A stretch of DNA of 45,219 nt, from NCBI RefSeq assembly GCF_030539875.1, contig NZ_JAUNXI010000015.1, positions 1 through 45,219 of the forward strand, written 5' to 3'. Below the pieces are notes generated by a model. That model did no database searches, had not been told where the DNA came from, and worked only from the letters and a program-made list of their open reading frames with translations. This document shows positions 2,743 through 31,003 of this stretch, piece by piece (within the stretch, counting starts at the first letter, position 1; every line of letters starts with the position of its first letter). Source of the DNA: Methanobrevibacter sp. Lineage in GTDB: Archaea > Methanobacteriota > Methanobacteria > Methanobacteriales > Methanobacteriaceae. The position numbers and the translations under genes are program-made.

Positions 2743-3859
2743 TTAAATATTCTTAAATTCTTTTAAAATCTTGTTTGAAGCAATTCTGTGTTCATAATTA
2801 ATTTCAGGATCATTTTGTAAAGTTTCAATAAAAGTATTCATAAAATCATCAGTATTGTTCAATAATCTCAAATAATAGTTTATTGTAGGCAAAACACCAT
2901 TAACAATAATTTGGCAGCCATGTTCCTCTTTAATATCTATAATTGATTTTTCAATCTTTTCACGATTAACTATTTTTCCTGTTGTTAAAATGTAATACCT
3001 TTGGATTTTTGTAGGTTTAATTTTATCATAAGCATCTTGAACCATCATACTATCTATATTTTTTTCAAATTTGACTTCAATAACTTCATATTTTTCTTTA
3101 CTGACTTCATCTTTGACAACAATATCCCCAGCTTCATGACTGCTTCTATCAGAACTTGTATGAGAACCTAAATTCTCAACATATTTTCCATCAAATCTTT
3201 TTATTTCCTTACTAATGCAAGAATAAATAGAATATAATGCAATAACAGGCAAAATAGACGCTCCAGGACTTTATATTTGTAATAGAAGAGTTTTACTAAA
3301 TAGTTCATTATATCAGAAATAGTAAATTCAGATTCTGATTCAATCGGGTTTATTAAAACAATAGCCCTTTTACTTTTTTCATAAATACTTCTTTGAAATA
3401 AACCAGTTAAAATTTCTTCAGGGTCACTCCCTTTTTCTTCTATATTATTAATAAGATTTAAAAATGTGGATTTAACATTGGTATCGCGAATCTTTCCAGG
3501 ATAATCGAGATTATAAGGAATATTCTGCTCTAAACTTCTAGTTAATCAACCTGATTCTCTCATAGCACCTGCAAACTTTTTTGATTTCAAAAATGGTGTA
3601 ACATATTTAGTATCAAAACTTCTGCCACTATATCCATTCGCCATATTTGCTTGGTGAAGTCTAATATCTTGCTCAGGATGTAAACATTTATAGGTTAAAC
3701 AAGTAGTTAAAACTGTAAAAACCCCTTTAAATGTTTCTTCTTTTTCTGCAAGAATTTTTATCCAATTTTTTCATCTTCAGTTAATTTTAGAGTAGAGAAA
3801 TCTTTTAATTTACTTGCTTTAGTATACATTTTTTCTAAAAATTCGCATTCTGGATCCAT
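2743..3859 (-). pseudogene. Decayed type II restriction endonuclease (SacI-family-like)
   Basis: Joining the frames on the minus strand gives a product of about 372 residues starting MDPECEFLEK at 3859, behind a GAGGGG ribosome-binding site. Conserved-looking blocks are DIRLHQANMANGYSGRSFDT, TRSLEQNIPYNLDYPGKIRD, SPGASILPVIALYSIY, SHTSSDRSSHEAGDI and EVIEVKFEKNID (possible PD-(D/E)XK core, D...E-V-K). These resemble, from memory, nucleases of the SacI family paired with C5 methyltransferases. Three lesions are visible: a lost A in the A-run at 3766-3771, a TGA at 3546-3548 where Trp is expected (ESG-W-LTRSLEQ), and a lost A near 3270-3272. It directly follows its partner methyltransferase. 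Family name is tentative; the broken state is clear. Confidence 0.75.
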
Positions 3860-4854
3860 ATAATTCCCCTCATTTAATATAAATTGATTATTAATTTCTT
3901 TTGCAATTTCTTTAATCATATTTACGCATACACTGTTTCCGATACGCCTATATAAATCAGAAGATTTTCCAATCTTCTTAAAATCTTCTGGAAAACCAAA
4001 AAACCTAAAACATTCATCAATAGTTAATTTTCTAACTTCACCTTCATCATAAATCCAATATCTGCCAGAAGTTTCACTAGAACTTATAGTGGGATGGTTG
4101 CCTTCAGAGGAGTATATCCTATTTGGTTGCTTATGAACTCTTGATAAATGCATAGTTCCAGGCCTAACTCCTTTTTTTCTAATTTTCTTATTACGGTAAC
4201 CTCTGAATATTAAACCAGATTTTTGCCTTTTATAATCATCAAGCAGTGTATATTCACTATGTTTTAAATATTCAAATTTACCTTCTTTGTCTAAAAATAG
4301 TTTCATAGAATCAATAGGAGTTTTATCTAATTTATCAAAATTAAATACTTTTCCATCCTTATTACCTACAATAATTACCCTTTCGCGATTCTGAGGAACT
4401 CCAAAATCTCGTGCATTAAGGACTTTATAAGATACTGTATAACCTAAATTATGTAATGATTGTAAAATTATAGACATGGTTCTTCCATGGTCATGTGTGG
4501 CTAAGTTTTTAACATTCTCTAAAATAAAGATAGGTGGTTGTTTAACTTCTAATACTCTGCAAATATCAAAAAATAAAGTTCCTCTTGCTTCATCATAAAA
4601 CCCTTCTTGTTTTCCGCAAATAGAAAAAGCTTGACAAGGAAAACCTGCACATAAAATATCGAAATCTGGTATTTTAGATGGGTCTAATTTTGTAATATCA
4701 CAGCATGGATTATCCTTAAAATTTTTTTTATACATTTCAATAGCATGAGGATCATTCTCACAACTAAAAACACATTCAAAATTTTCATTTTCTAGCCCTA
4801 ATCTAAAACCGCCTATTCCGGCAAAAAGGTCTATAATGTAATTTTATTTTTCAA
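3758..4854 (-). pseudogene. Frameshifted C5-cytosine DNA methyltransferase
   Basis: The motifs of a 5-methylcytosine methyltransferase are present in order: I (DLFAGIGGFRLGLE, near 4800), IV with the catalytic Cys (GFPCQAF, near 4640), VI (ENVKNL), VIII (QNRERVIIVG), IX/TRD end (ECFRFFGFPEDF) and X (RIGNSVCVNM). The natural start is a TTG at 4854 (K-N-K-I-T-F-IDLFAG), but a base is missing at about 4835-4837 (ATTATAG where ATTTATAG is expected), so motif I is out of frame. The frame still open starts at 4735 and lacks motif I, so it should not bind S-adenosylmethionine. At the 3' end the frame also runs on past the likely TGA near 3870 into the nuclease gene, suggesting another indel. It is the modification half of the decayed pair. 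Confidence 0.82.
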
Positions 4855-5210
4855 AGTATCAGCCCTAAAAATTTACTATTTTATAATTTTATAATAAATT
4901 ATGTAGTTTTTTACTTTTAAATGTTTAGAGAGTGTTAGAAAAGTAATTTTTTATATATTTAAAATGTTGAGTCCATATGCTGCAAATTAAAAACTATTTT
5001 TTATAATTTAGAATCAAGTATATTAAATAGACATTACATAAAACTGTTAGAAAACATGCCATTTATTAATTTATTTAATTATAAATTTAATTAAAATATA
5101 TCAAAACTTAGTTGCATTTTTTAAAATTATTAATAAGATAATAGATATGTTTATAGCGAATTTTTAATAAATTTAATATTAACTTTAATCGATTAATAAA
5201 AGGGATTTGA
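4855..5210. other. AT-rich spacer upstream of the GGCT-HEPN gene
   Basis: About 350 bases of very AT-rich sequence with no open frame of note. It must hold the promoters of the decayed methyltransferase (leftward) and the next gene (rightward). The ribosome-binding site AAAGGG at 5200-5205 precedes the ATG at 5211. Confidence 0.5.
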
Positions 5211-6146
5211 ATGGATTCAAAAATAGATTTTAAAACAGACTGTGAAAAAAGATATAAAACCAAAACTAGCGCATGTATTCCTAAAAATCTAGATTTGCCT
5301 TTTTTTGCTTATGGTTTTTTCAAGCCTCATCAAATAGCTCATTCTAAAATTCAAAGGTATTGTCATAAGGATATTAAGGAAGCATATGTAGAAGGCCACA
5401 TAAAACATGTGAATGGAATGCCGGTTTTAGATTTGAATAGAATAGGCAATTCTAGTGTTTTAGGTTACATATTGAAATTTAAAAATAGGGATAAGAAAAG
5501 AGCGTATAAAGCAATAGGTTACAGCAAACATATGAATATCTACAAATGGAAAGTAATAAGAATCAACGGAAAACCTGTAAACACTTTAGTTAGCTCTACA
5601 CCAAAAAAGTTAGATGAATTCTATTCCGTAATCCAAAATTTGGAATACGTTGTCCATAAAGAAGATCTGAGAAATAACATATATAATTATGATTGGAGAT
5701 TAGACCCACTTTATATCGAAACCATCACATACATTCATGATTTAATAAAAGATATGGAATATGATGAGTATAGAAAATTAATTAAAACTCAAATGCTCTA
5801 TACATCATTATGGACTGTGTTGGATAGGTTTTTGACTTTTAAATATGGGAATACTAAAAAAGGAAATGTAATAGCTTTATCCAAAGAAAAATATTTCAAA
5901 GATATTTTAGATGATGTTATAGGTAGAAAATTTAATGACACTAAAGTATTTTCAGCAGAAGATCTGAATTCACATAAATTAGATATAGATGACCCTAAAG
6001 AAGCAGCTTTGTATTATTATACTTTAAGGAATAATGTGGTTCATAGCGGTAAGATGTTCTCTTCAGAGAATGCGATGTTATTTGAAGCATTGAAAGAATT
6101 ATTAGATATTTTTGAAAGAGTTTTAAACGAAGTTAGAAATGAATAA
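5211..6146 (+). CDS. GGCT-like / HEPN-like fusion protein
   Basis: A 311-residue protein with two parts. Residues about 28-135 (LPFFAYGFFKPHQIAHSK ... VEGHI ... GMPVLDL ... LGYILKF ... YKWKVIRINGKPVNT) look like the gamma-glutamylcyclotransferase/AIG2-like fold. Residues about 165-311 are helical and contain R273-N-N-V-V-H278, the Rx4H motif of HEPN nucleases. HEPN domains often act as RNases in toxin-antitoxin and abortive-infection systems, so a defence role is plausible, but no antitoxin gene is seen beside it. It is convergent with the LlaJI-like operon (3-base gap). Domain assignment is by eye; the HEPN motif is the firmer part. Confidence 0.6.
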   Translation: MDSKIDFKTDCEKRYKTKTSACIPKNLDLPFFAYGFFKPHQIAHSKIQRYCHKDIKEAYVEGHIKHVNGMPVLDLNRIGNSSVLGYILKFKNRDKKRAYKAIGYSKHMNIYKWKVIRINGKPVNTLVSSTPKKLDEFYSVIQNLEYVVHKEDLRNNIYNYDWRLDPLYIETITYIHDLIKDMEYDEYRKLIKTQMLYTSLWTVLDRFLTFKYGNTKKGNVIALSKEKYFKDILDDVIGRKFNDTKVFSAEDLNSHKLDIDDPKEAALYYYTLRNNVVHSGKMFSSENAMLFEALKELLDIFERVLNEVRNE

Positions 6147-6149
6147 TAA

Positions 6150-7442
6150 TTAATTACTATTTCGAAGCCTATCCCTATTTTCTTTACAGGCACATTCAAT
6201 AGTATTAGCTAATTTCATTTTATTTTCTGTTGATTTACTTCTATAAGAATCCATTAAAAATTTAGTGTCTACTAAAATTCCTTGAATGTATTCGTAATTC
6301 TTTTCATTTTTTTTCCACTCTGACACAGCTGCACCGATATTAAAAAATGGTTTATCTGATGGAAACTTTTCTTCATTTTCATTATTAAAAGGAATTAAGA
6401 ATGCATTGTATATATTATTTGGGTTAATTTTTTTATTTATTTCTATATTCTCAGCATATGTAATCTGTTTGTTTATATCAGCATTCTGTGGCAAATCTTT
6501 TTTATTATTTGAATCACCATATTGATAATATTTAGCATCAAGAACGAAGTAACAATAATTATCTTCACTATCATTTGCACACATAATAGAATCTGGTTGA
6601 AGAGGGTGTGATGGTTGACTTCTTTCCCCATCAGATAATATCCAACATGCCTTAGGATAATACTCTATTTTTTCCTCGGTTCCAAAAGCTTTATCAATCA
6701 ATCCTTCCCAAACATTTTCAAATGAGTTAGTTCCAAAATGGAACTTATTTCCATGTTCATCTTCATCTATCGACTCAATAATATCTATCATTGATTGAAA
6801 TAATCTTTTTTTATTATCATTATTAGTATTAGCTAATTTGGTTCTAAGAATTGACAAAAATCTTTTATCATCAAATGGCCCTCCTGCTTTTGGAGGCATG
6901 AATGAAGTAAAAATCCATCCCACCCTTTCAAAACTTATACGGACACAATGCTGATGAATTCTTGTAATTTCATTATTTTCATTTGGAGTAGATTGTTTTA
7001 CTGTGAACAATGTATAAATTGGAGAATAGGTACAATTATTTCTATTTAATGACAATAAAGGCTTTTGTTGTTTTATAGTTCTTGACCAATCAATTTTTCC
7101 TTTTTCCCTAGTTTTGTAAACTGGTTCTACTTCAGTATAATAACCATTTTCCAAATAATAACGAATTATTTCAAGGTAAGCATTTATAGGGAATTCTACA
7201 TCATGGCTTTCTTCATACTTTTTTTCCGTAATGGAACCTTCCTTTTTGTCTTTAAATTCATTTAAAATATCAAATAATTTAAGTATGTCCCTACGAATTT
7301 CTTCATCTGTTTCGGAAAGCCTATAACCTATTGGAAAATAAACCAGTGCATCTCCACCATTCGCCTTGAGCCCAACAAAACGATTTTCACTATCATGTTT
7401 AACAACATTAATTCTATCTCTCAAAGTATTATTGCTGGTCAT
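6150..7442 (-). CDS. LlaJI-family restriction endonuclease subunit (McrC-like)
   Basis: A 430-residue nuclease subunit of a GTP-dependent restriction system. Family hallmarks: VGLKANGGDALVYFPIGYRL near the N-terminus, and a C-terminal PD-(D/E)XK core with PDSIMC at about residue 274 and LDAKYYQYG at about 300. In LlaJI, the R2 subunit of this type works with an McrB-like GTPase to cut DNA near GACGC. Here its ATG at 7442 overlaps the stop of the McrB-like gene by 14 bases, so the two are translationally coupled. It ends three bases from the convergent GGCT-HEPN gene. No damage is visible. The recognition site cannot be predicted. Confidence 0.82.
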   Translation of the reverse strand: MTSNNTLRDRINVVKHDSENRFVGLKANGGDALVYFPIGYRLSETDEEIRRDILKLFDILNEFKDKKEGSITEKKYEESHDVEFPINAYLEIIRYYLENGYYTEVEPVYKTREKGKIDWSRTIKQQKPLLSLNRNNCTYSPIYTLFTVKQSTPNENNEITRIHQHCVRISFERVGWIFTSFMPPKAGGPFDDKRFLSILRTKLANTNNDNKKRLFQSMIDIIESIDEDEHGNKFHFGTNSFENVWEGLIDKAFGTEEKIEYYPKACWILSDGERSQPSHPLQPDSIMCANDSEDNYCYFVLDAKYYQYGDSNNKKDLPQNADINKQITYAENIEINKKINPNNIYNAFLIPFNNENEEKFPSDKPFFNIGAAVSEWKKNEKNYEYIQGILVDTKFLMDSYRSKSTENKMKLANTIECACKENRDRLRNSN

Positions 7443-9168
7443 GTTCTTGTTCCTGGTTTGATTTTTCTGCTAGACCAATATATGAACGAGCTTCATTGGT
7501 AAAAATAGAAAATCTATCTTCATTTTTAGGTGCACTGAATTTTTCAACAAAATATTCTAAAGTAAATAATTCAACTTCTTCTTTATCAAATATTTTATCT
7601 CTATCAAATTTAAAAGCATCATCCCATAAATATTTTAAAACTTTTTCAGCAAATTTGTTATTTTGTAATTGAGCATCCTCTTTTTGTGTTTCAGTAGCAT
7701 TTTCATCATTAACTGCATTATCAAATAACAAATCATCTTTCCTAACAAAGTATGCTCCTAATCTTTTATCTTCAGATGATAAAGTAGTAGAATTTATTTC
7801 TATAATAAATTTATTAATTCCCTTACAAAATTCATTCCACTTTTTATTTGTGTTCAGTATTTGTATTGCGAATTCTTTATCATCTAAATCATTTTCAATT
7901 AAACGCATCTTCCAACGTCTTTGGAAAGCTGTATCTAAAGTAAATACATTCTGGTCTGATGTATTCATAGTTGCAATAATATTTAAATTAGAGGGAATCC
8001 TAACTTTATGATTTTTATTATCGTATACTTTATATGCTATATTTGAATTAGTTATTGCATATTCACTGGTGCCCTTTTTAAACCCATCTTTATAAGATTC
8101 CATTCTATCCAATAATTGAAAAACATCACCAAAAATAGCTGGTGCATTACCCCTATTTAATTCTTCAATTATTAAATAAAAACTTTCATTAGGATTTTTA
8201 AATGCTTTTTCCAAAATAGATGTGAATGGACCAGGTACAAAGTCATATGTAACATTACCATCAGAAACGATAGGAAGAATTTGCCCTATAAAATCACCAT
8301 ATGTATAATCAGGATGGAAGATTACTCTTTCCATTCTGGAATCATCATCACAGTAATCTTGTTCAATAGCATAACTTTTTCCAGAACCTGGAACTCCATA
8401 AAGTAAAATATTTTCTCCATTCGGTTCCCTTTGGGCTAAATCTAACGGATGAAAATGGTCATATACTTCTAAAACCCTATCAAAGATTTTGTATTCTTTA
8501 GCAAAATTATACATTGCCATCATTTCAAAAATATCATTATTTAAATCTTCTTCACTTATTTCGTTGCTAGATAATTCTTCAGCAGTATACTCTTTAGCAA
8601 AAATAGTTCCAGCTTCATATTCTTCACTGTGATTATATTCCCCATTGAAATCTACAACATCATCAAAATTATCTAAATTAAAATTTAAATCATTTCGTGA
8701 TTGATAATAATATAAAAAAATAGTTTTAAAAACATTGGTCAAATATTCTAATGTATTAATATCATTTGGAGAAAGTTTACTTGAAGAAGTAAAATTGCCT
8801 GTTCCTATAGCTAAAGAGAAAAAAACTCCAGTTTTATCAGGTTTAAATAAGAAAACAGGATAAAATCCTTTCGATGCGTTTGTAGTTATTTCAACATCAA
8901 AAATTGGTATATAACAAATATCCGTCCAGTTTTTACCATGCCCATACTTCCCTGTAGTATTATAGCCATCTCCTATAATATTTTTTATTATTCCGGGAAT
9001 TTTTTTAGTAATGGTTTTACCCCACTCTTTAGACTCCAAATATTTTTCATTAGTATAAGCATATCTCTCATCTCCAGTAGCTTTATATCGTGCATCTTCT
9101 ATTTTTTTACCATTGTACTTTGTTCTAACAAGATCTATTAATTTAACTAAATTTTCTTCAGACTCCAT
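7429..9168 (-). CDS. McrB-like AAA+ GTPase of the LlaJI-type system
   Basis: A 579-residue protein. Residues about 10-170 match the MrcB/DUF3578-like N-terminal domain (KKIPGIIKNI ... FDVEITTNASKGFYPVFLF ... FFSLAIGTGNF). The AAA+ motor follows, with Walker A GVPGSGKS at about 258-265, Walker B LIIEELNRGN at about 330, sensor-1 IATMNTSD near 398 and an arginine-rich FQRRW near 414. McrB-type motors hydrolyse GTP and drive DNA translocation before cleavage by the partner nuclease, here the overlapping LlaJI-like gene. The N-terminal domain is likely to bind the target DNA. The upstream region carries an ATAGT-TT-ACTAT palindrome. The gene appears intact. Confidence 0.85.
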   Translation of the reverse strand: MESEENLVKLIDLVRTKYNGKKIEDARYKATGDERYAYTNEKYLESKEWGKTITKKIPGIIKNIIGDGYNTTGKYGHGKNWTDICYIPIFDVEITTNASKGFYPVFLFKPDKTGVFFSLAIGTGNFTSSSKLSPNDINTLEYLTNVFKTIFLYYYQSRNDLNFNLDNFDDVVDFNGEYNHSEEYEAGTIFAKEYTAEELSSNEISEEDLNNDIFEMMAMYNFAKEYKIFDRVLEVYDHFHPLDLAQREPNGENILLYGVPGSGKSYAIEQDYCDDDSRMERVIFHPDYTYGDFIGQILPIVSDGNVTYDFVPGPFTSILEKAFKNPNESFYLIIEELNRGNAPAIFGDVFQLLDRMESYKDGFKKGTSEYAITNSNIAYKVYDNKNHKVRIPSNLNIIATMNTSDQNVFTLDTAFQRRWKMRLIENDLDDKEFAIQILNTNKKWNEFCKGINKFIIEINSTTLSSEDKRLGAYFVRKDDLLFDNAVNDENATETQKEDAQLQNNKFAEKVLKYLWDDAFKFDRDKIFDKEEVELFTLEYFVEKFSAPKNEDRFSIFTNEARSYIGLAEKSNQEQEHDQQ

Positions 9169-11760: not shown

Positions 11761-12136
11761 GTGATAAAAATGTGTGAAGAAAAGTTAAAAAAAGTAATAG
11801 ATATGGAAACCGAAAAAATAAGAGACAAGTATGATCAATGCCAAAATCTAGTGAGATTATATCAAATATGGGAAGTAAAGAAGATGACTGGAATTGACAT
11901 TGAGACAATCAAGTTAATGAGGTCCAAACTAAAAAAAAGAAAATAAGATATGTGAACTCCAAACAGACATAAGGGATTTGGACTATGAAATAAGCTATAA
12001 TATGGGATTTGAAATGGGGGTGATGGAAAGCAAATACTCTGCAGCATACCAACTGCTTAAAAACGACTGGAAAATTGAAGATATAGCCAGAATAACAGAA
12101 CTTGACCAAGATCAAATCAAACAATTAATTGATTAG
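11761..12136 (+). pseudogene. Small helical protein gene split by a +1 frameshift in an A8 tract
   Basis: The first frame starts GTG at 11761 (or ATG at 11770) and ends at 11946 after SKLKKRK. Removing one A from the A-run at 11929-11936 joins it to a second frame (ENKICELQTDIRDLDYEI ... NMGFEMGVMESKY ... KIEDIARITELDQDQIKQLID) ending at 12136. The joined product would be about 125 residues. The end pattern (KNDWKIEDIARITELDQDQI) resembles the tail of Rpn/PD-(D/E)XK transposase-like proteins, which often end in an IAEITGLS-type motif, but the nuclease core is absent. It lies between the P element and the H hairpin. Homopolymer slippage, decay or a sequencing error could all explain it. Confidence 0.65.
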
Positions 12137-12197
12137 ACATGCAAATCATCTTTAGGCAAACATCATTTATCAAGATGATTTCTATGGTAGACCAGTT

Positions 12198-12286
12198 CGA
12201 AAGGCGACCTATCCTCCCATGGATTCTTAGGGGCTAAAATTAAATGAAGTTTTTAGCTCCTGAATCTAACAATTAAAATTTATGCA
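12198..12286 (+). repeat. H element, copy 1 (conserved hairpin)
   Basis: It aligns with 30820-30914. Shared blocks are CGAAA, CCTCCC-A/G-TGGA, TTAG-GGGGCT, TGAAGTTTTTA-G/C-CTCCT, ATCT-N-ACAATTAAA and TTTAT-A/G-CA. AGGGGCTAAAA (12229-12239) pairs with TTTTAGCTCCT (12251-12261) over 11 positions with one G-U pair. It starts about 60 bases after a stop codon, so it may be a 3' RNA structure or an element end. Confidence 0.65.
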
Positions 12287-12293
12287 CAAGGAA

Positions 12294-12395
12294 TTTATTG
12301 TTTACAAATAATTTTCTCAACTAATTTTACTTATTTTTAACCATATCATTATAATTTTACAGCTTTACTGAAAATTGGCTTTAAAATTATATAGT
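12294..12395 (+). repeat. T element, copy 1
   Basis: It shares ATTGTTTAC, ATAATTTTCTC, TAATTTTACTTATTTTT, CATATCA, TAATTTTACA and CTTTAAAATT in order with 29963-30075, and the first half with 30950-31003. It follows the H hairpin directly, as at 30.9 kb. Role unknown. Confidence 0.55.
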
Positions 12396-12852: not shown

Positions 12853-15800
12853 ATGTTAAAATTAATAGGCAAACATGACAATTTTTTAAGATATAAGGAA
12901 ACTCATACTCCTTCTAGAACTATTTTTGTTGGGAATTTAGAAGAAGCTAGCAGTATTGATGTGAATGACTCCAAATCAGGATCTTCAAACTCATTATCTG
13001 TAAGATTTCTATTAAATGATTTAAATGATAAAATTGACTTAAATTTATCATTATCTGTTTTTTATAGAGTATATCCTACTTTTGAAGAGCAAGAAAAATA
13101 CATCAAAATAAATTATGAAGATACTGATAATGTTAATCAGTTTAAGATGGGTAATATTTGGAAAAGAAAAGATATTCCACTGAATCTTATAAGCTTTGAT
13201 AAGGATGAAATTTTTACAGTTGAATTGAAGGATTATATTCAAGATATTTTAGAATCAGATGAATTATATTTAAATTCTGAAGACATACCTGCAGATATTG
13301 CTAAAGATGAAGATAAATATAATTCATTTATAAAAGAATTACCTAAAAAAGATAACTCTTTTCTTAATTGGACTGTGGAAATCTCATTAAAAACTCAAAA
13401 ATTCACTCAAGATAAAAAGGAGCTAGTATTATGTACTATTTCATTAGTAAATAAGTCTGAAAGTCCGGATATTAATTTTAAACTTTACGAAAGTAATATT
13501 TTTGCTCCAAGTTTAGATATTAACCTTAATAACAATACTCCAGTTCCTTTTAAATATAAGTATACTCATGAAGGATATGCAAAAATATATGAAGAATATT
13601 TAAGATGTGTAAACTGCCAAGGAAAATTAAAAAATAACCATATAACAACAAGTGCTTACTCTTCATATGACCAACCAAAAGTTACCCCAAAAAACCAGAT
13701 AGAAGGGGCAGATATTAGATTTGAAACATTATCTACTGAAGAAGGATTAAATGAATTAACTAAAATTTATGAATTAATGAATGAACACCTCAATGATTGT
13801 GAAACTAAAGAACCCGATGAAGAATATTCTGAACAGATTTCTAATTTTAGGAAGATGCAAGATAGTTTTTACAAAGGGATAAATCTATTAAAAAATAATC
13901 CAAAGTCTTTAAAAGCATTTTTATTAATGAATAAAGCATTTAAATTAAATTCTGAAGAAAAAGGATATGATTCCTGGAGATTATTCCAGATAGTTTTCAT
14001 TGTTTCAGAATTAGTTGATGTGGTTGAAAAATCGTTTTCTAAAGATACCTGTTCATTATTGCATGTTATGACTGGTGGAGGTAAATCCGAAGCATACTTT
14101 GGATTAGTCATATTCTCAGCATTTTATGATAGGATTACCGGAAAAACATTTGGCGTGACAGCATTTACTAAATTCCCATTAAGAATGTTATCCATTCAAC
14201 AGTTACAGAGAATTGCCAATATATTTATTTGGGCAGAAGAAATAAGAAAAAATGAAAATTTAGGAGGCGAACCATTTTCCATAGCCTATTATGTCGGTTC
14301 TACTGATGATGAATTCCCTGATTATAACTATAAAGTCCTTAAAATTATTGAAAAAAATGCAAATGATGGTTTAGATACACCAGGAAAAATTATTGATACT
14401 TGTCCAATTTGTAAAGATCATCCTCCCGTATTTTTAGAAATGGACCCTGATAATAAAACAATTATCCATAAATGTAGTGAATGTGGACGAGAGTATCGCT
14501 TGTATTTTAGTGATGATGAGATATATCGTATGATTCCCACATTTATTGTTTCTACTGTTGATAAACTTGCATCTGTGGCCCAAAATAGAAGATTTAAAAA
14601 TTTATTCGGAGGCAAGTTGGATATTTGTCCAAACGGCCATGGATTTAATTCAAGAAATGACATATGTTTCTACAAAGATAAGAATTCAAACCAATGCAAA
14701 GAAAAAGGAAATCCGGTTCAAATTGACTTTAATACAGGACCTAGTTTGATGATACAGGATGAACTTCACCTTATTCGTGAAGGATTTGGTACTATTGATT
14801 CTCATTTTGAATCCATGTTTGAAGCTTTAGAACAAGAACTAGGGGGATTTTCATTTAAAAGAGTAGCAATGACCGCTACTGTTGCAGGTGCTAGAAATCA
14901 GATAAAACAATTGTATGATAAAGAAACAGTAATTTTCCCACCAAAATTAATAAATTCCAAGGGAGAAGACTTCTTTTTTAACTATGAAAAATATGATGAT
15001 AAAAAACCAATAATTCAAAGAAGAATACTTGGAATCAAACCAAATCATTCTGTAATTTCACCTTTAACTGCAATATTAAGATATTCTGCACAATTTTTTA
15101 AATATTTGGATGAAAATTTAGAAGAATTTGCTGAAAAATATGAATTTGACTTAGAAGATTTAATCGTGATAAAAGAATATTATAAACAGATTTTAACTTA
15201 TCACAAAAAGAAATCTGCAACACAAATTGTTAGTTATTTTGCAGAGAGCTTTATTAATGGCCGTGAAGATTCTTATAATATTGAAGCCAGACCATTAACA
15301 GGAGAAAATAATTTAGAATATATCAAGGAAACAATAGATTTGGTTGAAAACTATTACAAAAATCCAAATAATAGTAACCGGTTGCTCTCCATAAATGCTA
15401 CAAGCATTGTGTCACATGGAGTGGATGTCGATAAATGGAATTTCATGGTATTCGATGGAATGCCTAATAATACCTCAGAATATATTCAAGCCTTAAGTCG
15501 TGCTGGACGTAAAAAATTTGGAGTTATCTTCTTAACATTTGTACCTCACAGAACTAGAGATCTAAGTTTTTACCATAATTTTAATGAATATCATGAAATA
15601 TTGAATGATAAGGTTGAAAATGTTGCACTTTCAAGATGGACCAAATTGGGATTCGATCAAACATTTACTAGTGTATTCTTAGGGGCAATATTAAATTATA
15701 TGTCTGATATATGTGAAAAACCGATTTATTTAGTCAAAGATGTTCGAAAACTTTTCATTAATGACTATGAAAATATTAATAATGCTAAAAGAGAGGATAT

Positions 15801-16095
15801 CAATCAGGAATTACTTCAATTATTGACTGATTTCTTGCATAAATCATATATAACTGATTATGAAGTTACAGGTTCTAAATATTTCCGCGAGAGCATTAAA
15901 AGAGAAGCTGAGGATAGAATATTAGCTTTAGCAAATTATGGAATTTCCAGGGATAATTCTACATTCTTAAATAAAGCCTTGAAGAATAATGATAATAAGA
16001 ATTATAATACCCAAATGGGTATGAGAGGCATTCAAGACATAATAATTTTAAAACCTGGAAATGGTGAAAGTACATTTAGGAATAATTGGAGGTGA
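12853..16095 (+). CDS. drmA: DISARM helicase DrmA
   Basis: A 1080-residue (from the first ATG) SF2 helicase. Motifs: N-terminal THTPSRTIFVGNL; a CVNC pair near 250; Walker A MTGGGKSEAYFGL at about 405; zinc-like CPIC ... CSEC at about 516-540; Walker B variant QDELHLIREGFG near 634; MTATVAG near 672; and motif VI EYIQALSRAGR near 878. This matches DrmA of DISARM, which restricts phage DNA together with DrmB. The frame is open upstream, and GGGGG at 12783-12787 precedes an ATA at 12796 rather than an ATG, so 19 more residues (IEIDYKEYQRFANILTDDI) are likely part of the protein. The stop overlaps the drmB ribosome-binding site. Confidence 0.82.
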   Translation: MLKLIGKHDNFLRYKETHTPSRTIFVGNLEEASSIDVNDSKSGSSNSLSVRFLLNDLNDKIDLNLSLSVFYRVYPTFEEQEKYIKINYEDTDNVNQFKMGNIWKRKDIPLNLISFDKDEIFTVELKDYIQDILESDELYLNSEDIPADIAKDEDKYNSFIKELPKKDNSFLNWTVEISLKTQKFTQDKKELVLCTISLVNKSESPDINFKLYESNIFAPSLDINLNNNTPVPFKYKYTHEGYAKIYEEYLRCVNCQGKLKNNHITTSAYSSYDQPKVTPKNQIEGADIRFETLSTEEGLNELTKIYELMNEHLNDCETKEPDEEYSEQISNFRKMQDSFYKGINLLKNNPKSLKAFLLMNKAFKLNSEEKGYDSWRLFQIVFIVSELVDVVEKSFSKDTCSLLHVMTGGGKSEAYFGLVIFSAFYDRITGKTFGVTAFTKFPLRMLSIQQLQRIANIFIWAEEIRKNENLGGEPFSIAYYVGSTDDEFPDYNYKVLKIIEKNANDGLDTPGKIIDTCPICKDHPPVFLEMDPDNKTIIHKCSECGREYRLYFSDDEIYRMIPTFIVSTVDKLASVAQNRRFKNLFGGKLDICPNGHGFNSRNDICFYKDKNSNQCKEKGNPVQIDFNTGPSLMIQDELHLIREGFGTIDSHFESMFEALEQELGGFSFKRVAMTATVAGARNQIKQLYDKETVIFPPKLINSKGEDFFFNYEKYDDKKPIIQRRILGIKPNHSVISPLTAILRYSAQFFKYLDENLEEFAEKYEFDLEDLIVIKEYYKQILTYHKKKSATQIVSYFAESFINGREDSYNIEARPLTGENNLEYIKETIDLVENYYKNPNNSNRLLSINATSIVSHGVDVDKWNFMVFDGMPNNTSEYIQALSRAGRKKFGVIFLTFVPHRTRDLSFYHNFNEYHEILNDKVENVALSRWTKLGFDQTFTSVFLGAILNYMSDICEKPIYLVKDVRKLFINDYENINNAKREDINQELLQLLTDFLHKSYITDYEVTGSKYFRESIKREAEDRILALANYGISRDNSTFLNKALKNNDNKNYNTQMGMRGIQDIIILKPGNGESTFRNNWR

Positions 16096-16099
16096 TTTT

Positions 16100-17995
16100 A
16101 TGGATGATTACAATATGAAAAAAAAGTTTTCTGCTTACAGTGCACTTTTTAATCTAACTCCATGGTCTACTTTTATGAGAGACGGATTATCAAACAGAGT
16201 AGTGGTTTTATTTAATGATGAGAATGAAATAAATTTAAAAATTAACAATGAAAAAAGATTAATAACAAATTTGTATAATTATATTCGGGATATGTATAAT
16301 AAACGCATAGATAACCATAATCTTACATTAAAAGAACTTCCCCATGTTCCTTATGATGACATGATAGAGATTGTTAAATTACAATTAAAATTCGATGATT
16401 CAGAATCTAGTTCTGGAAAATATGTAACTTATCCAAGAACTTTTTATTGTGAAAAATGTGGAGATTATGTTTATTTTAAAAATGATGCTGAATTCGAGAA
16501 TTTTAATCCAAAAAAATGTCGAAAATGTTCAGACGGCCAATATACTCAATTTCATTTTGTAGGATTCTGTGAAGAATGTGGAAACATTCAACCATGTTCT
16601 CAAGGATGTAAAGAACATCATTTAGAAGATATTGAGCTTAAACGTAGAGACAAGGATGATTTGAAAACTTGGCAATTAAAATGCAGAATATGCGGGAAAG
16701 AAAGAGATTTCGTTCCAACATGTTATCATAACGACTTCAATGGAGATTCTTTAATCAAAAAAAGCAAACCTTTCAAAACCATGTTTCCTTTAAATATGAA
16801 TGAAGGCTCCGTATTTAAATCTGTAGTAAAAACAATTGTTGATATTCCTGAGGGTTTTGGTAATTACCGTCCAGGAACTGAACCTAACCCAGATTATATT
16901 TTATTTGGCCTTTATTTACAAAAATTTGATGAATTATATAAGAATGTATCCTTCAGAAAAGTAAGTAGAGATTTGAATATTTATTTCAGTTATCTAGATG
17001 AAGATGAAGAAGATATTGAAGACGATGGATATACAAAACAGTTTGAAAGAGGGCAGAAAATAAATGAAATAGTTGAAACATTAGAAAGAGAATATTCAAT
17101 CAAAGAAATATCAGAAATAAATGATTATTTGATTTTAACAAGCTTTTTCGATAAAAGTAAAGATAAAGATTTATTTATTCCTAGCTACAACGAATATTTC
17201 AAATCTGAAACAGAATCAGAAGATATGGATTTAAACTCTTTTGAAGATAATGATGATTATGAATCATTTAAAAATGATTATAATATTTCCAATATAATCT
17301 ATATTCCAGATATTCATTTAATTTCATCATCTATAGGAAAAATAAGAGGAATTAATAAATTTTACGATGATTCATTTGTTCCTCATTTTGAGCCTCATTG
17401 GAAAAATATGGCAGAAAATAAGATTAAAATCTATGCATATCCTTTCCAAACAGAAGGTTTGATGATTGATTTGGATAAAATCAAGATTGTTAATTGGTTA
17501 ATAAGAAATGATAAATTAATTATTGATGATAAAAAGATTACTGAAGAAATCAGCACATATAATGAAGCTAAGGAAATATTATTTAAATTAGATGAAAATA
17601 AAGAGAATTCATCATATTACGAAGTGAAAAAACTATTACATACTTTTTCCCATATTTTAATAACTAGATCAAGTTTATACACTGGTTTGGATGTGAATTC
17701 TTGTGGCGAAATAATTTTCCCTAAATCTGGGGCCTTTGTTATTTATTCTACAAGCAACATCAATATTGGAGGATTCAAGTTTGTATTTGAAAATTCATTG
17801 AAAGAGTGGTTTAACAATGTAAAACTAGATATCACAGATTGTATTTTCGATCCAACATGTATTCAAGACGCAGGAGCCTGTTTCTCATGTTTGCATTTAC
17901 CTGAGTATGTGTGTTCTGAATTTAATGACCATCTTGACAGGGATGTGTTCATAGGAGAACATAGATATAATTTTGGTTTTTGGAATGACCTTTAA
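16100..17995 (+). CDS. drmB: DISARM protein DrmB (DUF1998)
   Basis: A 631-residue protein. It has several Cys pairs in its first 210 residues (CEKC, CRKC, CEEC, CRIC), a Glu/Asp-rich middle, and a C-terminal DUF1998 domain: LLHTFSHILITRSSLYTGLD at about 512-531, then FDPTCIQDAGACFSCLHL and CSEF at about 580-610. DrmB with DUF1998 is a core DISARM part that forms a DNA-translocating complex with DrmA. The ATG at 16100 is chosen because GGAGGTGA (16088-16095) lies four bases before it and overlaps the drmA stop; an upstream GTG at 16061 has no such site. Tight spacing marks one operon with drmA and drmE. Confidence 0.85.
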   Translation: MDDYNMKKKFSAYSALFNLTPWSTFMRDGLSNRVVVLFNDENEINLKINNEKRLITNLYNYIRDMYNKRIDNHNLTLKELPHVPYDDMIEIVKLQLKFDDSESSSGKYVTYPRTFYCEKCGDYVYFKNDAEFENFNPKKCRKCSDGQYTQFHFVGFCEECGNIQPCSQGCKEHHLEDIELKRRDKDDLKTWQLKCRICGKERDFVPTCYHNDFNGDSLIKKSKPFKTMFPLNMNEGSVFKSVVKTIVDIPEGFGNYRPGTEPNPDYILFGLYLQKFDELYKNVSFRKVSRDLNIYFSYLDEDEEDIEDDGYTKQFERGQKINEIVETLEREYSIKEISEINDYLILTSFFDKSKDKDLFIPSYNEYFKSETESEDMDLNSFEDNDDYESFKNDYNISNIIYIPDIHLISSSIGKIRGINKFYDDSFVPHFEPHWKNMAENKIKIYAYPFQTEGLMIDLDKIKIVNWLIRNDKLIIDDKKITEEISTYNEAKEILFKLDENKENSSYYEVKKLLHTFSHILITRSSLYTGLDVNSCGEIIFPKSGAFVIYSTSNINIGGFKFVFENSLKEWFNNVKLDITDCIFDPTCIQDAGACFSCLHLPEYVCSEFNDHLDRDVFIGEHRYNFGFWNDL

Positions 17996-18006
17996 TGAGG
18001 GGTTTT

Positions 18007-20571
18007 ATGGTTCTTAAAAAATGGAATAAGGTTATTAACAGCAGAATGGGATGTTATTTTCCAGAGAGAAATAATGACAAGACATTAGAGTTTCCTAAAA
18101 ACTTAAGTCCCTTAACAAACTTTTCTTTAGATGTTTTTGCAAACACAATATCAGAGAAAAATTTAATTATTAATTTTCCTGATTTTAAACTGGGCCCCAT
18201 TTCATTATTTGCATATATATTTTCTGAAAAATTTAAACAAAGCATATATGTTTTAGCTAATGAAAAGGGAGATTCCTTAAATAGCAGATCTAAAATTTCA
18301 CTTAATAAGAACCACTATTTGTTAAGTGATTATGGCGAGTTTATTTTCCACAGATTGCCAATTTTTTATTTAAAAAGACTTAATGAAAATGAGGATAATT
18401 ATCAAGAAAATCCAATAAAATATAAATTGTCTTTAGAAAAATATCTTCCCCGTGCTAGTCGGAAATTTAAAAAAGAATATACTGAAAAAAGAGTTTTAAA
18501 TCAGAATTTCTTTCCAAAAATTATTATAGATACCGACAGCTCTTTGCATAGCATCAAAAACAAATTAAAAATCATTCTTGAAACTAATGATAAATATATT
18601 AATCCTGAGAAGTTTCCTATTGGTTTAATCATTATTGAAGACGGAGATAGATTCTTTCGATCATTTGGTCGATTGGAAAATTTCATAACTTGGTTTAAAG
18701 AATTAGATAAAGATGTTAAGCTATTAATACATTTTAATAATCCTCCTATAGAATATGTGAAAATACTAATAAAAGAATTGAATTTCGCTGTATTACCGTT
18801 TAATAAATTCATTTTAACAAATAACGATTATTTAAATGAAAACTCCAGACATTACTTTGAAAATAGAGGAACTGTTAATTTAGAACATTTGAGTCGCTAT
18901 AATTTAGATTCAGATATTTTTATTAAAGAAAACATAAATGTTACTATTTATGATGATATAATCAATTCCGGTTCAATTGATATGTTTTTCTCTAATGCCT
19001 ACTCTTCATTTAAAAAAATAGACATGGATACTGTTTATAATCAAAATTCTCTTCACAAAGCCAGAGAACTACTGTTTAATTTATATAATTTAACAATTAA
19101 TCCAAACTATTTAAAAATTTCATTTAAATTTAATAATCATTGGATTAGAGGAAACATATATCATTTTATCCAAGATTTCAAGAGTAAATTGTATATGGAA
19201 AATCACAAGAATAGATTTTTGATTTATGACTTTTTAGATTCATTGAGCAGCATGTATTTTGAATTGTCTAGCTGCAAACGTGTTAATGAAGATTTATCTT
19301 ATTCAAGAAAAGCCAAAGACTATGTTTTATACGAACTATTGGAGGATTTGATTAAACAGAAAAAAGAAGTGTTTGTCGGCACTTATATTGATACTGAACC
19401 TACTGTTTTAAAGCAAACTTTGGAAAAGGGAGAGTTTTCTAATGCGGATTCAGTAGTTCCAATTTCTATGGAAATGCTTATTCAAAAACCCGATTCTGAA
19501 AAAGTTGGAAAAACACTAGTTTTGCCGGGCATTATTCCAGAAATGTTCACTTCAGAAATATTTAAACCATATGACGAAATAATTATCTTATCCTACGAAG
19601 GTAGAAATCATAAATATCTGGTGGAACAATTGAATCGGCTTGTATTTGGGAATATTATTGAAGAAAAAGAGTATATGGATTATTTCAATGAAGCATTAGA
19701 GCCTTTTGATTCTGAAGTGGCTCGTGAGATATTGGATAATTTTTATAAAAGATTTAATGAAATAGAATTTGAAGAAGAAAAAACCATAGAAGAAACAGAG
19801 CCTATGGAATCAGAATTTGAAGAAAGTGAAAATATTTTCAATATAGATATTAATTTCGACAATTATATGAATGATTGGACTGAAAGTAAATCCAATTTAA
19901 GTTCGGATATTTCCAATGAAATAGATTATAAACATTATGACACTATTTCATTTAATTTACAGAATATTTCAAATAATAATTTTGTAGAAAAAAAATTACC
20001 TGTAAATAAGTCATATTTAACATTCGACAACATCTACCATATTGATGATGCAAAAGAACTAAAACCGTCTGAATTGAAAAGCGGGGATTATATCGTCATT
20101 ATTGACAATGATGAAAAAAAATCCTTATTAAGCTTAGTAATAGATGCTTCTGATTTGAAATCTAAAATAAAATCTGATTTAGTTGAATATTGGAAATTAG
20201 AATTTTTAAATTTTGTTGAAATGAATAACCTCAAATATTCAGAGGTTTTTGAATTGTATCGTGAAGAAGGCGGGGATAAAACATATCAAACTGTCATGCA
20301 ATGGTGTAAGGGCGAGTTAATCGGTCCCCAATCTAGTGAAGATTTATACATCATAGGCAAACTTATTGATAATGATTTCATCATAGAAAATTACAGAATA
20401 ATTTTTAGACAAATTGCATTAGTAAGAAATTCACATCGTTTAATAGGAAGGAAATTGAAAAAGATGATTAAATCTATTTTAACTGATGAATACTTAGATC
20501 TTTCCAGTTTAAACGACAGCGAATACTTAATTTATGAAAATATACAAAATGGAATTTATAAAATTGTTTAA
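18007..20571 (+). CDS. drmE: DrmE-like protein of class 2 DISARM
   Basis: An 854-residue protein that I assign to DrmE from its size, its place directly after drmB and its general form. It looks like a worn helicase: an N-terminal lobe (FPDFKLGPISLFAYIFSEKF), a second-lobe-like block (ELLEDLIKQKKEVFVGTYID ... KTLVLPGIIPEMF ... YDEIIILSYEG), an acidic linker at about 590-660 and a helical C-terminus. I see no Walker A. DrmE marks class 2 DISARM and its activity is not known. The ATG at 17995 overlaps the drmB stop, but GAGGGG sits four bases before the ATG at 18007, so that is preferred. It could instead be another defence-associated protein of similar build. Confidence 0.6.
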   Translation: MVLKKWNKVINSRMGCYFPERNNDKTLEFPKNLSPLTNFSLDVFANTISEKNLIINFPDFKLGPISLFAYIFSEKFKQSIYVLANEKGDSLNSRSKISLNKNHYLLSDYGEFIFHRLPIFYLKRLNENEDNYQENPIKYKLSLEKYLPRASRKFKKEYTEKRVLNQNFFPKIIIDTDSSLHSIKNKLKIILETNDKYINPEKFPIGLIIIEDGDRFFRSFGRLENFITWFKELDKDVKLLIHFNNPPIEYVKILIKELNFAVLPFNKFILTNNDYLNENSRHYFENRGTVNLEHLSRYNLDSDIFIKENINVTIYDDIINSGSIDMFFSNAYSSFKKIDMDTVYNQNSLHKARELLFNLYNLTINPNYLKISFKFNNHWIRGNIYHFIQDFKSKLYMENHKNRFLIYDFLDSLSSMYFELSSCKRVNEDLSYSRKAKDYVLYELLEDLIKQKKEVFVGTYIDTEPTVLKQTLEKGEFSNADSVVPISMEMLIQKPDSEKVGKTLVLPGIIPEMFTSEIFKPYDEIIILSYEGRNHKYLVEQLNRLVFGNIIEEKEYMDYFNEALEPFDSEVAREILDNFYKRFNEIEFEEEKTIEETEPMESEFEESENIFNIDINFDNYMNDWTESKSNLSSDISNEIDYKHYDTISFNLQNISNNNFVEKKLPVNKSYLTFDNIYHIDDAKELKPSELKSGDYIVIIDNDEKKSLLSLVIDASDLKSKIKSDLVEYWKLEFLNFVEMNNLKYSEVFELYREEGGDKTYQTVMQWCKGELIGPQSSEDLYIIGKLIDNDFIIENYRIIFRQIALVRNSHRLIGRKLKKMIKSILTDEYLDLSSLNDSEYLIYENIQNGIYKIV

Positions 20572-25607: not shown

Positions 25608-25629
25608 TTATAAACGGATTGGTGATTTT

Positions 25630-26688: not shown

Positions 26689-27006
26689 ATATATTTTGTG
26701 AGAAAATAAATGAGGGGGCATTGTGACCTTAAAAATCTTAATCTTTTTTACTTTATTTTTTAATTAAATAAAAATAACATAACCTTATTAACTGTTAATT
26801 TAAAAATAGCTACAATCAATTTAATAAAATCTGAATTAAAAAATATTATTTTTAATCTAGAGCATATAGCTACTTTTTTATCAAAACTTCTTTTTTTAAT
26901 CATTTCCTTAATTTTTAAATACTTTACTAAACCAATATATTCTTATATAGTTTGTTTTCAATTGAAAACTTGCAAAAAAAGTAAAATAAAGCCTTGGTGG
27001 AGAAAC
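26689..27006. other. Intergenic region closing the defence island
   Basis: About 320 AT-rich bases after mcrC. A TATA-like TTCTTATATAG at 26940-26950 and a GGTGGAG ribosome-binding site at 26996-27002 serve the next gene. No open frame of note. Confidence 0.5.
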
Positions 27007-29855: not shown

Positions 29856-29962
29856 TACACACATCAAACCAAATCGAATCCAAAATTTCTTTTATAGCCC
29901 TCGCAAAAAAAAGACCCAACAAAAGTTTAAATTAAAAGGGTATCTGAAAAATATGGCCAATC

Positions 29963-30075
29963 ATTGTTTACTATATAAAACTATACATAATTTTCTCCGA
30001 TAATTTTGCTTATTTTTTACTATATCAACCTAATTTTACAATTTAATGATAATATTGACTTTAAAATTTAGAAAA
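29963..30075 (+). repeat. T element, copy 2
   Basis: It contains ATTGTTTAC, ATATAAAACTATACATAA, TTTTCTCCGATAATTTTGCT, TATTTTTTACTATATCA and CTTTAAAATTTAG. The whole length aligns with 12294-12395 apart from a 14-base insertion, and the first 44 positions align with 30960-31003. It lies upstream of the DUF3800 gene, so it may carry its promoter. Confidence 0.6.
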
Positions 30076-30206: not shown

Positions 30207-30806
30207 ATGAATTATATATACATTGATGAATCAGGAGATTTAGGGAATGATTCTAATTATTTAATCATGGGAGCCATAATAACAGATGACAAAGACAAGC
30301 TAGATAGAATAATAAAAAAAGCCAGAAGAAACTATAAACGGAAATTAGGCAATTCTACTGAAATAAAAGGAACAAAAACCAGACGCAACATTAAGAAAAA
30401 AATTCTAAAGGAGTTAAATAAAATAGATTATCAGTTAGTTATAATTGTTTTTGAAAAGAAACACAAATATAAAATTAATTATCATCATAATAACAACTTA
30501 TTATACAATATAATAGCTTCAAAGCTTGCTCCAAAACTACCTATCACAAACAAGACATCCATAATAATAGATAAATCAAAAAATAAAGAAAAGGATCAGC
30601 GAGAGTTCAATGACTTATTTTTAAACAATTTAAATAATCCCAAAAACCATCCGGTAACTATAAAGCACGAAGATTCAAAAAGAGAAAAAGGACTTCAAAT
30701 AGCTGATCTGTTATCATGGTCAGCATATCAAAGCATTGAACATGAAAATGATGAATTTATAAAATTAATCACAAATAAAACTATAAAAAAAGTATTTGAA
30801 GATTGA
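30207..30806 (+). CDS. DUF3800 family protein
   Basis: A 199-residue protein with the family's signature start YIYIDESGDLG (Asp7, Glu8 and Asp11 acidic cluster) and signature end KGLQIADLLSWSAYQ. DUF3800 proteins are thought to have an RNase H-like fold; their role is not settled and many sit near mobile or defence genes. The ATG at 30207 is chosen because the family begins right before YIYIDE; a TTG at 30189 would add six unlikely residues. It is strongly AT-rich and Lys-rich, unlike its neighbours, and lies between two T elements with the H hairpin 13 bases after the stop, which suggests transfer as a unit. Confidence 0.8.
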   Translation: MNYIYIDESGDLGNDSNYLIMGAIITDDKDKLDRIIKKARRNYKRKLGNSTEIKGTKTRRNIKKKILKELNKIDYQLVIIVFEKKHKYKINYHHNNNLLYNIIASKLAPKLPITNKTSIIIDKSKNKEKDQREFNDLFLNNLNNPKNHPVTIKHEDSKREKGLQIADLLSWSAYQSIEHENDEFIKLITNKTIKKVFED

Positions 30807-30819
30807 AGAACCCCAATGC

Positions 30820-30914
30820 CGAAATAATGTCGCCTCCCGTGGAGACAAAGCTTAGAGGGGCTGAACCTCAATTGAAGTTTTTACCTCCTACATCTTACAA
30901 TTAAATATTTATAC
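30820..30914 (+). repeat. H element, copy 2 (conserved hairpin)
   Basis: It aligns with 12198-12286. AGGGGCTGAA (30856-30865) pairs with TTTACCTCCT (30880-30889) with one C-C mismatch and two G-U pairs. The preceding CCTCCCGTGGA and following TTACAATTAAA and TTTATACA blocks are also kept. It is richer in G+C than the surroundings, as expected for a structured RNA in an AT-rich genome. Confidence 0.65.
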
Positions 30915-30949
30915 ATAGACCATATTTAAACCTTTGCATATGATTTGTT

Positions 30950-31003
30950 TTAATTTACCATATAAAACTATACATAATTTTCTCCCATAATTTTACTTAT
31001 TTT
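30950..31003 (+). repeat. T element, copy 3 (5' half)
   Basis: It contains TTTACCATATAAAACTATAC, then ATAATTTTCTCCCATAATTT and TACTTATTTT. It follows an H hairpin as at 12.3 kb but loses similarity after 31003. Confidence 0.6.

What the first reader, a model, noticed from the sequence alone, without database searches (positions are those of the whole stretch)
12198..12395. Recurring H (hairpin) and T noncoding elements behind unrelated small genes
The H element at 12198-12286 and 30820-30914 keeps a stem (AGGGGCTRAA with TTTTASCTCCT) with most pairs conserved, and each is followed by a T element (12294 and 30950); a third T lies at 29963. Before them are a frameshifted helical-protein gene in one place and DUF3800 in the other. 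A constant noncoding frame around different cargo suggests an undescribed cassette, or a family of small structured RNAs.
Basis: partly seen in the sequence, partly recalled or inferred. Interest (0 to 1): 0.68.

Follow-up and report, generated by a model that had tools for sequence, protein, structure and literature searches.

The report
Structured RNA paired with DUF3800 nuclease
The repeated non-coding "H" element is the gene of a small folded RNA, read from the opposite strand, that sits tail-to-tail against a DUF3800 nuclease-like gene in many archaea; the pair looks like an RNA-controlled toxin (toxin-antitoxin-like) module and this RNA branch is absent from the Rfam catalogue.

Summary
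The H similarity is real, but strand, structure and "cargo" were misread. The H copy at 30805-30892 is a structured RNA encoded on the MINUS strand, tail-to-tail with the DUF3800 gene (30207-30806). A covariance model found 69 copies in 47 of 152 genomes of the phylum, all in one archaeal family (mostly Methanobrevibacter), with strong covariation (20 of 28 pairs changed on both sides). An archaeal TATA box lies 37 nt upstream in most copies. DUF3800 is always convergent; its fold is RNase HII-like. DUF3800 decays first while the RNA remains (36 of 59 distinct loci). No intact DUF3800 close to the window's was found without an RNA. The same arrangement recurs in other archaea, with an RNA type not in Rfam and with Rfam's DUF3800-X RNA; bridging hits connect the types. 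The 12198 copy is a decayed solo remnant without promoter or intact 3' half. The T element is a local repeat, not part of the system. Best reading: a two-part module in which the RNA restrains (or is an obligate partner of) a DUF3800 nuclease, working like an RNA antitoxin but lacking the defining features of type III toxin-antitoxin systems. Structure, strand, promoter and linkage are shown computationally; the antitoxin role is inferred.

The parts
30207..30806 (+). DUF3800 gene, RNase HII-like putative nuclease; the ORF is open from 30189, likely ATG at 30207
   Evidence: Pfam PF12686 E 1e-17; PADLOC DUF3800_VII; AF2 pLDDT 94.8, best PDB folds archaeal RNase HII
30805..30892 (-). H2: structured RNA core, convergent with DUF3800 and ending at its stop codon
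   Evidence: R1 83.5 bits, E 1.6e-19 (this copy was in the model); family structure and covariation
30923..30930 (-). TATA box (GCAAAGG-TTTAAATA) of the RNA gene; start of transcription expected near 30900
   Evidence: coordinates; the same box at -37 +/- 2 in most copies
30785..30804 (-). probable 3' tail of the RNA with a U-tract, antisense to the last codons of DUF3800 (inferred end)
   Evidence: T7 run in the sequence; T-runs of 5 or more after the RNA in 41 of 60 copies against a shuffled mean of 23 (maximum 34)
12229..12286 (-). H1: decayed solo copy of the RNA gene; 5' half recognisable, 3' strand of P1/P3 and TATA box lost, no DUF3800 beside it
   Evidence: similarity to H2; no TATA; E 2.5 at 12203-12264, minus
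29960..30075 (.). T repeat copy upstream of DUF3800 (local repeat, not part of the conserved module)
30954..31003 (.). T repeat copy beyond the RNA promoter; with 29960 it flanks the DUF3800-RNA unit as a direct repeat
   Evidence: 94% identity over 50 nt
12308..12388 (.). T repeat copy beside H1
   Evidence: 81% identity

Best explanation
H2 is the gene of a small, three-way-junction RNA, transcribed from its own archaeal promoter on the minus strand and ending tail-to-tail at the stop codon of a DUF3800 gene that encodes an RNase HII-like nuclease. The two genes form one module found across archaea. Most likely the folded RNA binds the DUF3800 protein and holds its nuclease activity in check; when RNA supply fails (infection, loss of the module, stress) the nuclease is released. 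It therefore works like a protein-toxin/RNA-antitoxin pair. SHOWN computationally: structure, strand, positioned promoter, linkage and orientation, fold of the protein, order of decay. INFERRED: that the RNA binds the protein, that it inhibits it, and that the free protein is harmful. H1 is a relic of the same module.
For: 69 copies found with a model built from 15. Covariation: 20 of 28 pairs changed on both sides, 173 double-changed cells against 53 in shuffles, 91.6% of cells paired against at most 52% when slid. Minus strand: -17.6 against -1.35 kcal/mol. TATA motif within -46..-26 in 52 of 65 copies (shuffle mean 7, maximum 15; mirror control 4), mostly at -36 to -38. Every detected adjacent DUF3800 is convergent, usually ending within about 30 nt of the RNA. 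All DUF3800 genes of the close clade (matches to the alignment at about E 1e-60 or better) have an RNA downstream, including those first seen without one (L224, L225, L229, L239). Loss is one-sided: of 59 distinct assessable loci 23 have intact DUF3800, 22 a broken one and 14 none, with the RNA still recognisable. RNAs beside intact DUF3800 all keep the promoter (23/23) against 26/36 beside decayed DUF3800 (Fisher p 0.0045). DUF3800: invariant D8, E9, D123, D168; RNase HII-like fold, Foldseek E 1.6e-6, TM about 0.6. The same convergent layout recurs in 15 loci with Rfam DUF3800-X and with a further RNA type.
Against: No expression, binding or toxicity data. The decay order could partly reflect target size (a 600-nt gene against a 90-nt RNA) and shared ancestry of loci. 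An obligatory cofactor or guide RNA would also be always present with an intact protein. Neighbouring genes are mostly housekeeping or integrases rather than defence genes. Retained solo RNAs could also mean that the RNA acts in trans on something else.
Confidence: 0.5

Rival explanations
1. Effector ribonucleoprotein: the RNA is an obligate cofactor or guide that activates and aims the DUF3800 nuclease, much as omega-RNA serves TnpB, for instance in defence.
For: Every intact close DUF3800 has an RNA; conserved unpaired stretches such as GGCGAAUUAGG; DUF3800 was suggested to act in interference or RNA processing beside Cas12a2 (PMC10910872); the window module lies in a defence island.
Against: RNA copies with promoter persist after the protein is lost, 26 of 36, which a pure cofactor should not do so often. 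No variable guide-like segment was seen at a fixed place.
Confidence: 0.28
2. Antisense control: the convergent RNA overlaps the 3' end of the DUF3800 messenger and limits its expression (type I-like).
For: Tail-to-tail layout; the probable U-tract tail overlaps the last codons.
Against: Overlap is short (about 20 nt) and the conserved information is in internal base pairs that covary, not in complementarity to the gene; in many loci the RNA core ends up to 30 nt beyond the stop codon.
Confidence: 0.1
3. Non-coding end of a mobile element that carries DUF3800 (element terminus), with H and T as ends.
For: Copies lie among varied genes, some beside integrases; T repeats flank the unit in the window.
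Against: T is absent with H elsewhere, and a positioned promoter and covariation on one strand point to a transcribed RNA. A conserved second end on the other side of DUF3800 was not looked for systematically.
Confidence: 0.07
4. H and T are chance or low-complexity similarities.
For: The region is AT-rich, and T matches elsewhere are weak.
Against: H1-H2 score 61 against shuffle maximum 28; model hits to E 1e-22 in other species.
Confidence: 0.01

Closest known systems
DUF3800-X RNA (Rfam RF02984)
   Same: Convergent, immediately downstream of an archaeal DUF3800 gene in all 15 loci found; outer helix, GGUAA-type junction and inner hairpin look alike; a model of the intermediate RNA type (R3) hits four DUF3800-X RNAs at the same coordinates with E 3e-4 to 2e-3.
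   Different: The window RNA does not reach any Rfam family, even at E up to 5; most copies have an extra hairpin (P2) and some a further hairpin.
Other DUF3800 RNA motifs of Rfam (DUF3800-I, DUF3800-IX and others)
   Same: Putative RNAs linked to DUF3800 genes (Rfam families named in PMC11701678; association noted in PMC10910872).
   Different: No match to these models here; their orientation relative to the gene was not tested.
Type III toxin-antitoxin systems (ToxIN, CptIN, TenpIN)
   Same: Structured RNA paired with a nuclease-type protein; likely RNA neutralisation of a protein.
   Different: There the RNA is upstream in one operon, in tandem repeats, before a terminator (PMC5086642); here it is single, downstream, convergent, with its own promoter, and the protein has an RNase HII-like fold.
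Retron type VII / PADLOC DUF3800_VII
   Same: DUF3800 domain protein; that type VII retrons carry DUF3800 is from memory.
   Different: No reverse transcriptase was recognised among the window proteins scanned.
TnpB with omega-RNA (IS200/IS605)
   Same: RNase H-fold nuclease beside a non-coding RNA.
   Different: Omega-RNA is on the same strand as tnpB (own knowledge); here the strands are opposite and no transposon ends were found.

Membership tests
DUF3800-associated RNAs (general class) | Conserved structured RNA located next to a DUF3800 gene | tested here: met
Rfam RF02984 DUF3800-X | Match to the covariance model at the gathering score | tested here: not met
   no Rfam match for the window or close relatives
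Rfam RF02984 DUF3800-X | Position: convergent, directly 3' of DUF3800 | tested here: met
   Window and relatives; the 15 DUF3800-X loci
Rfam RF02984 DUF3800-X | Detectable homology of the RNAs | tested here: inconclusive
   Only through intermediates: R2 hits L224 (1.9e-5), L226 (0.0017), L186 (0.044); R3 hits L226 (2.4e-6) and DUF3800-X loci (3e-4 to 2e-3)
Type III toxin-antitoxin | RNA antitoxin upstream of the toxin in the same operon, separated by a terminator | tested here: not met
   RNA downstream, opposite strand, own TATA box
Type III toxin-antitoxin | Antitoxin RNA made of tandem repeats | tested here: not met
   Single unit beside nearly all genes
Type III toxin-antitoxin | ToxN-like endoribonuclease fold | tested here: not met
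   RNase HII-like fold
Type III toxin-antitoxin | RNA neutralises toxicity of the protein | not testable with these tools
   Needs expression experiments
RNase HII-like nuclease fold (DUF3800) | RNase H fold with an ordered D-E-D-D acidic set | tested here: met
   Fold; invariant D8, E9, D123, D168; placement in the active site not measured
Type I (antisense) toxin-antitoxin | RNA complementary to the toxin messenger and acting on it | tested here: inconclusive
   Only about 20 nt of possible overlap at the 3' end

The most novel reading that the evidence does not exclude
Archaeal DUF3800 genes with their convergent RNA are a large, so far unrecognised class of RNA-controlled RNase HII-like toxins (a new type of toxin-antitoxin architecture: independent convergent RNA gene, non-repetitive three-way-junction antitoxin), which would give a common function to the DUF3800 RNA motifs.
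Probability: 0.4. Interest if true: 0.82.

Novelty: new variant of a known kind. Interest (0 to 1): 0.62.

Why it matters
DUF3800-linked RNAs have been catalogued as candidate RNAs; I found no paper in the library that states their function. Here strand, promoter, partner gene, orientation, protein fold and order of decay come together into a specific testable module in archaea, including rumen and gut methanogens. If the RNA restrains the nuclease, this is an RNA-antitoxin architecture outside the type III definition; if it guides the nuclease, it is a compact RNA-dependent nuclease. One experiment (protein with and without RNA) separates the two. The two RNA types described here (window type; GGUAA..GUGUACC-UUGA-GGUGCAC type) had no Rfam match in the scans made.

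Tried and rejected
T as a conserved element: rejected. Rfam membership by direct match: none, including searches up to E = 5. 'Different cargo' reading: no recurring cargo but DUF3800. Defence-island association as a rule: not supported, neighbours are mostly housekeeping genes and a few integrases, although the window copy does sit in a defence island. PDB sequence search for DUF3800: no relative, only de novo designs at E > 0.1. Viral contigs: only three distant DUF3800 relatives. The primary paper on the 224 RNA motifs is not held.

Full report
WHAT WAS CLAIMED. Two H elements (12198-12286, 30820-30914) with a shared stem, each followed by a T element, behind unrelated genes.

THE OBSERVATION. 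The two H copies are related (local alignment score 61; maximum of 1000 shuffles 28). T has three copies in this genome. But the window's own genus and family give a different picture of what H is.

RELATIVES. A DNA search of 67 congeneric genomes found H-like sequence in a number of them; the best matches start right after a DUF3800 gene. Fifteen copies, without the 12198 copy, were aligned. On the minus strand they share a fold: P1 (GRAG/CUYC) closes a junction with hairpin P2 (AACUUC/GAAGUU) and a long arm P3 ending in an inner hairpin. RNAalifold gives -17.56 kcal/mol on the minus strand and -1.35 on the plus strand; single-sequence folds agree for H2 and its relatives. The asymmetry is expected if the minus strand is the RNA: G-U pairs become A-C mismatches on the other strand (79 G-U against 3 A-C cells in the minus reading; the structure was derived on that strand, so this count is biased, but the comparison of fold energies is not).

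A FAMILY. A covariance model from these 15 finds 69 copies in 47 of 152 genomes of the phylum, in 4 genera of one family; a second model from all 69 finds the same set. In the 69-copy alignment 91.6% of pair cells are standard pairs (at most 52% when slid), 20 of 28 pairs have changes on both sides (shuffled mean 12.4), and 173 cells are double-changed (shuffled 53). The alignment was fitted to the model and so leans towards it, but the first 15-sequence MAFFT alignment already exceeds its controls. Some copies lack P2 and some carry an additional hairpin.

Tested on the same alignment, it has no more pairs with double changes than shuffles give (3 against 3.0), and one pair fails in 47 of 63 sequences.

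PROMOTER. Relative to the RNA start, TTTA[AT]A[AT] occurs within -46..-26 in 52 of 65 copies (shuffle mean 7, maximum 15; mirror control 4), mostly at -36 to -38. That fits an archaeal TATA box with the transcript starting about ten bases before P1. In the window the box is at 30923-30930 on the minus strand. After the RNA a T-run of 5 or more lies within 35 nt in 41 of 60 copies (shuffled mean 23, maximum 34).

PARTNER. DUF3800 is detectable beside about 50 of the 69 RNAs; it is always convergent and usually ends within about 30 nt of the RNA. Conversely, DUF3800 genes of the close clade found by an independent protein search all proved to have an RNA: those without an R1 hit had one on inspection (L239 cut by the contig end; L224 E 1.9e-5; L229 0.005; L225 0.008). 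For more distant DUF3800 genes of the family some RNAs are recognised by other models (L228 R3 E 2.4e-19; L226 2.4e-6; L227 6e-6; L238 DUF3800-X), while several (L230-L237, except L232 at E 0.19 with R2) have no significant model match, and in L233 and L234 nothing similar is visible.

PROTEIN. The alignment of 22 DUF3800 proteins has invariant D8, E9, D123 and D168. The AlphaFold2 model is confident (pLDDT 94.8), and the best solved folds are archaeal RNase HII (3p83, 1eke, 1i39; E 1.6e-6, TM about 0.6). From general knowledge, RNase HII has a DEAGRG motif and a D-E-D-D active site, which DUF3800's YIDESG and its ordered acidic residues resemble. Altae-Tran and colleagues also reported an RNase H fold for DUF3800 and its link to putative ncRNAs (PMC10910872).

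ORDER OF DECAY. Among 59 distinct loci with enough sequence, DUF3800 is intact in 23, broken in 22 and absent in 14, while the RNA is still recognisable; the promoter is present in 23/23, 18/22 and 8/14. So the protein is lost first, then the RNA erodes. Loci with an intact close-clade protein and no RNA were not seen. One-sided loss of this kind is what a toxin with an antitoxin predicts. Target size (600 against 90 nt) would produce part of it, and the loci are not independent, so this is suggestive rather than proof.

OTHER ARCHAEA. A scan of GTDB genomes with the DUF3800 alignment gave 80 loci, mostly archaeal. Fifteen loci in all, counting L238, carry Rfam's DUF3800-X RNA directly downstream on the opposite strand. 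Many others (Woesearchaeota, Micrarchaeota, Methanosarcinales, Thermoplasmata) carry a second RNA type at the same place, GGUAA[A/G]NCC...GUGUACC-UUGA-GGUGCAC...GGUUCUG, with a TATA box in 24 of 29 and heavy covariation (12 of 22 pairs changed on both sides; covariation score 0.495 against 0.161). Ten of these loci had no relevant Rfam match at E up to 5. Its model hits DUF3800-X RNAs at identical positions (E 3e-4 to 2e-3) and the intermediates L226 and L227, while the window-type model hits L224 and L226 and, weakly but at the right place and strand, L186, L165, L168 and L158. This suggests one continuous RNA superfamily; homology of the window RNA to DUF3800-X is indirect and not settled.

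THE 12198 COPY. It keeps the 5' half of the RNA gene (minus strand), lacks the 3' partner strands, lacks the TATA box and has no DUF3800; the family model scores it at E = 2.5. I read it as a relic of the same module.

T. T is confined to this genome apart from weak AT-rich matches, so it is not part of the system. Two T copies flank the DUF3800-RNA unit as a direct repeat, which may record how the unit arrived or was duplicated; this was not resolved.

MECHANISM. Shown: a structured, own-promoter, minus-strand RNA gene tightly linked to a convergent RNase HII-like protein gene. Inferred: the RNA binds and inhibits the protein. The main rival is an RNA that activates or guides the protein. The module does not meet the definition of type III toxin-antitoxin systems (upstream tandem-repeat RNA before a terminator in the toxin operon; PMC5086642), so it is filed as working like, not as a member of, that type.

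NOVELTY. DUF3800-associated RNAs are a known kind (Rfam, PMC11701678). The window RNA is a new branch of that kind, absent from Rfam in the scans made, with new evidence on strand, promoter, partner orientation and likely function.

Noticed in passing
window 12853-20571: DISARM-like genes DrmA, DrmB and DrmE in a row (PADLOC and Pfam), directly after H1 and T.
   Followed up: no
window 3758-9168 and 24072-26688: LlaJI-type restriction endonuclease and MrcB/AAA gene with a cytosine methylase, and an McrBC-type pair: the window is a defence island.
   Followed up: no
L205 1-5597: Euryarchaeal locus with three DUF3800 genes, each convergent with its own RNA, plus two further RNAs in 5.6 kb.
   Followed up: partly
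L029 862-1479: An otherwise intact DUF3800 in which the first conserved Asp is Asn (YIYINESG), next to an intact RNA with promoter.
   Followed up: no
L188 1652-1724 and 3143-3216: One locus holds both the second RNA type and DUF3800-X; only one DUF3800 was found there.
   Followed up: no
window 11770-12140: Frameshifted small helical gene before H1; its tail resembles the C-terminal tail of Rpn-type recombination-promoting nucleases (impression from memory, not tested).
   Followed up: no
window 26962-28971: Protein with a Phage_holin_4_2 membrane domain joined to a phosphodiesterase domain.
   Followed up: no
L090 3302-5075: Three RNAs in 1.8 kb with one intact DUF3800 and remains of another: tandem copies at different stages of decay.
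   Followed up: partly
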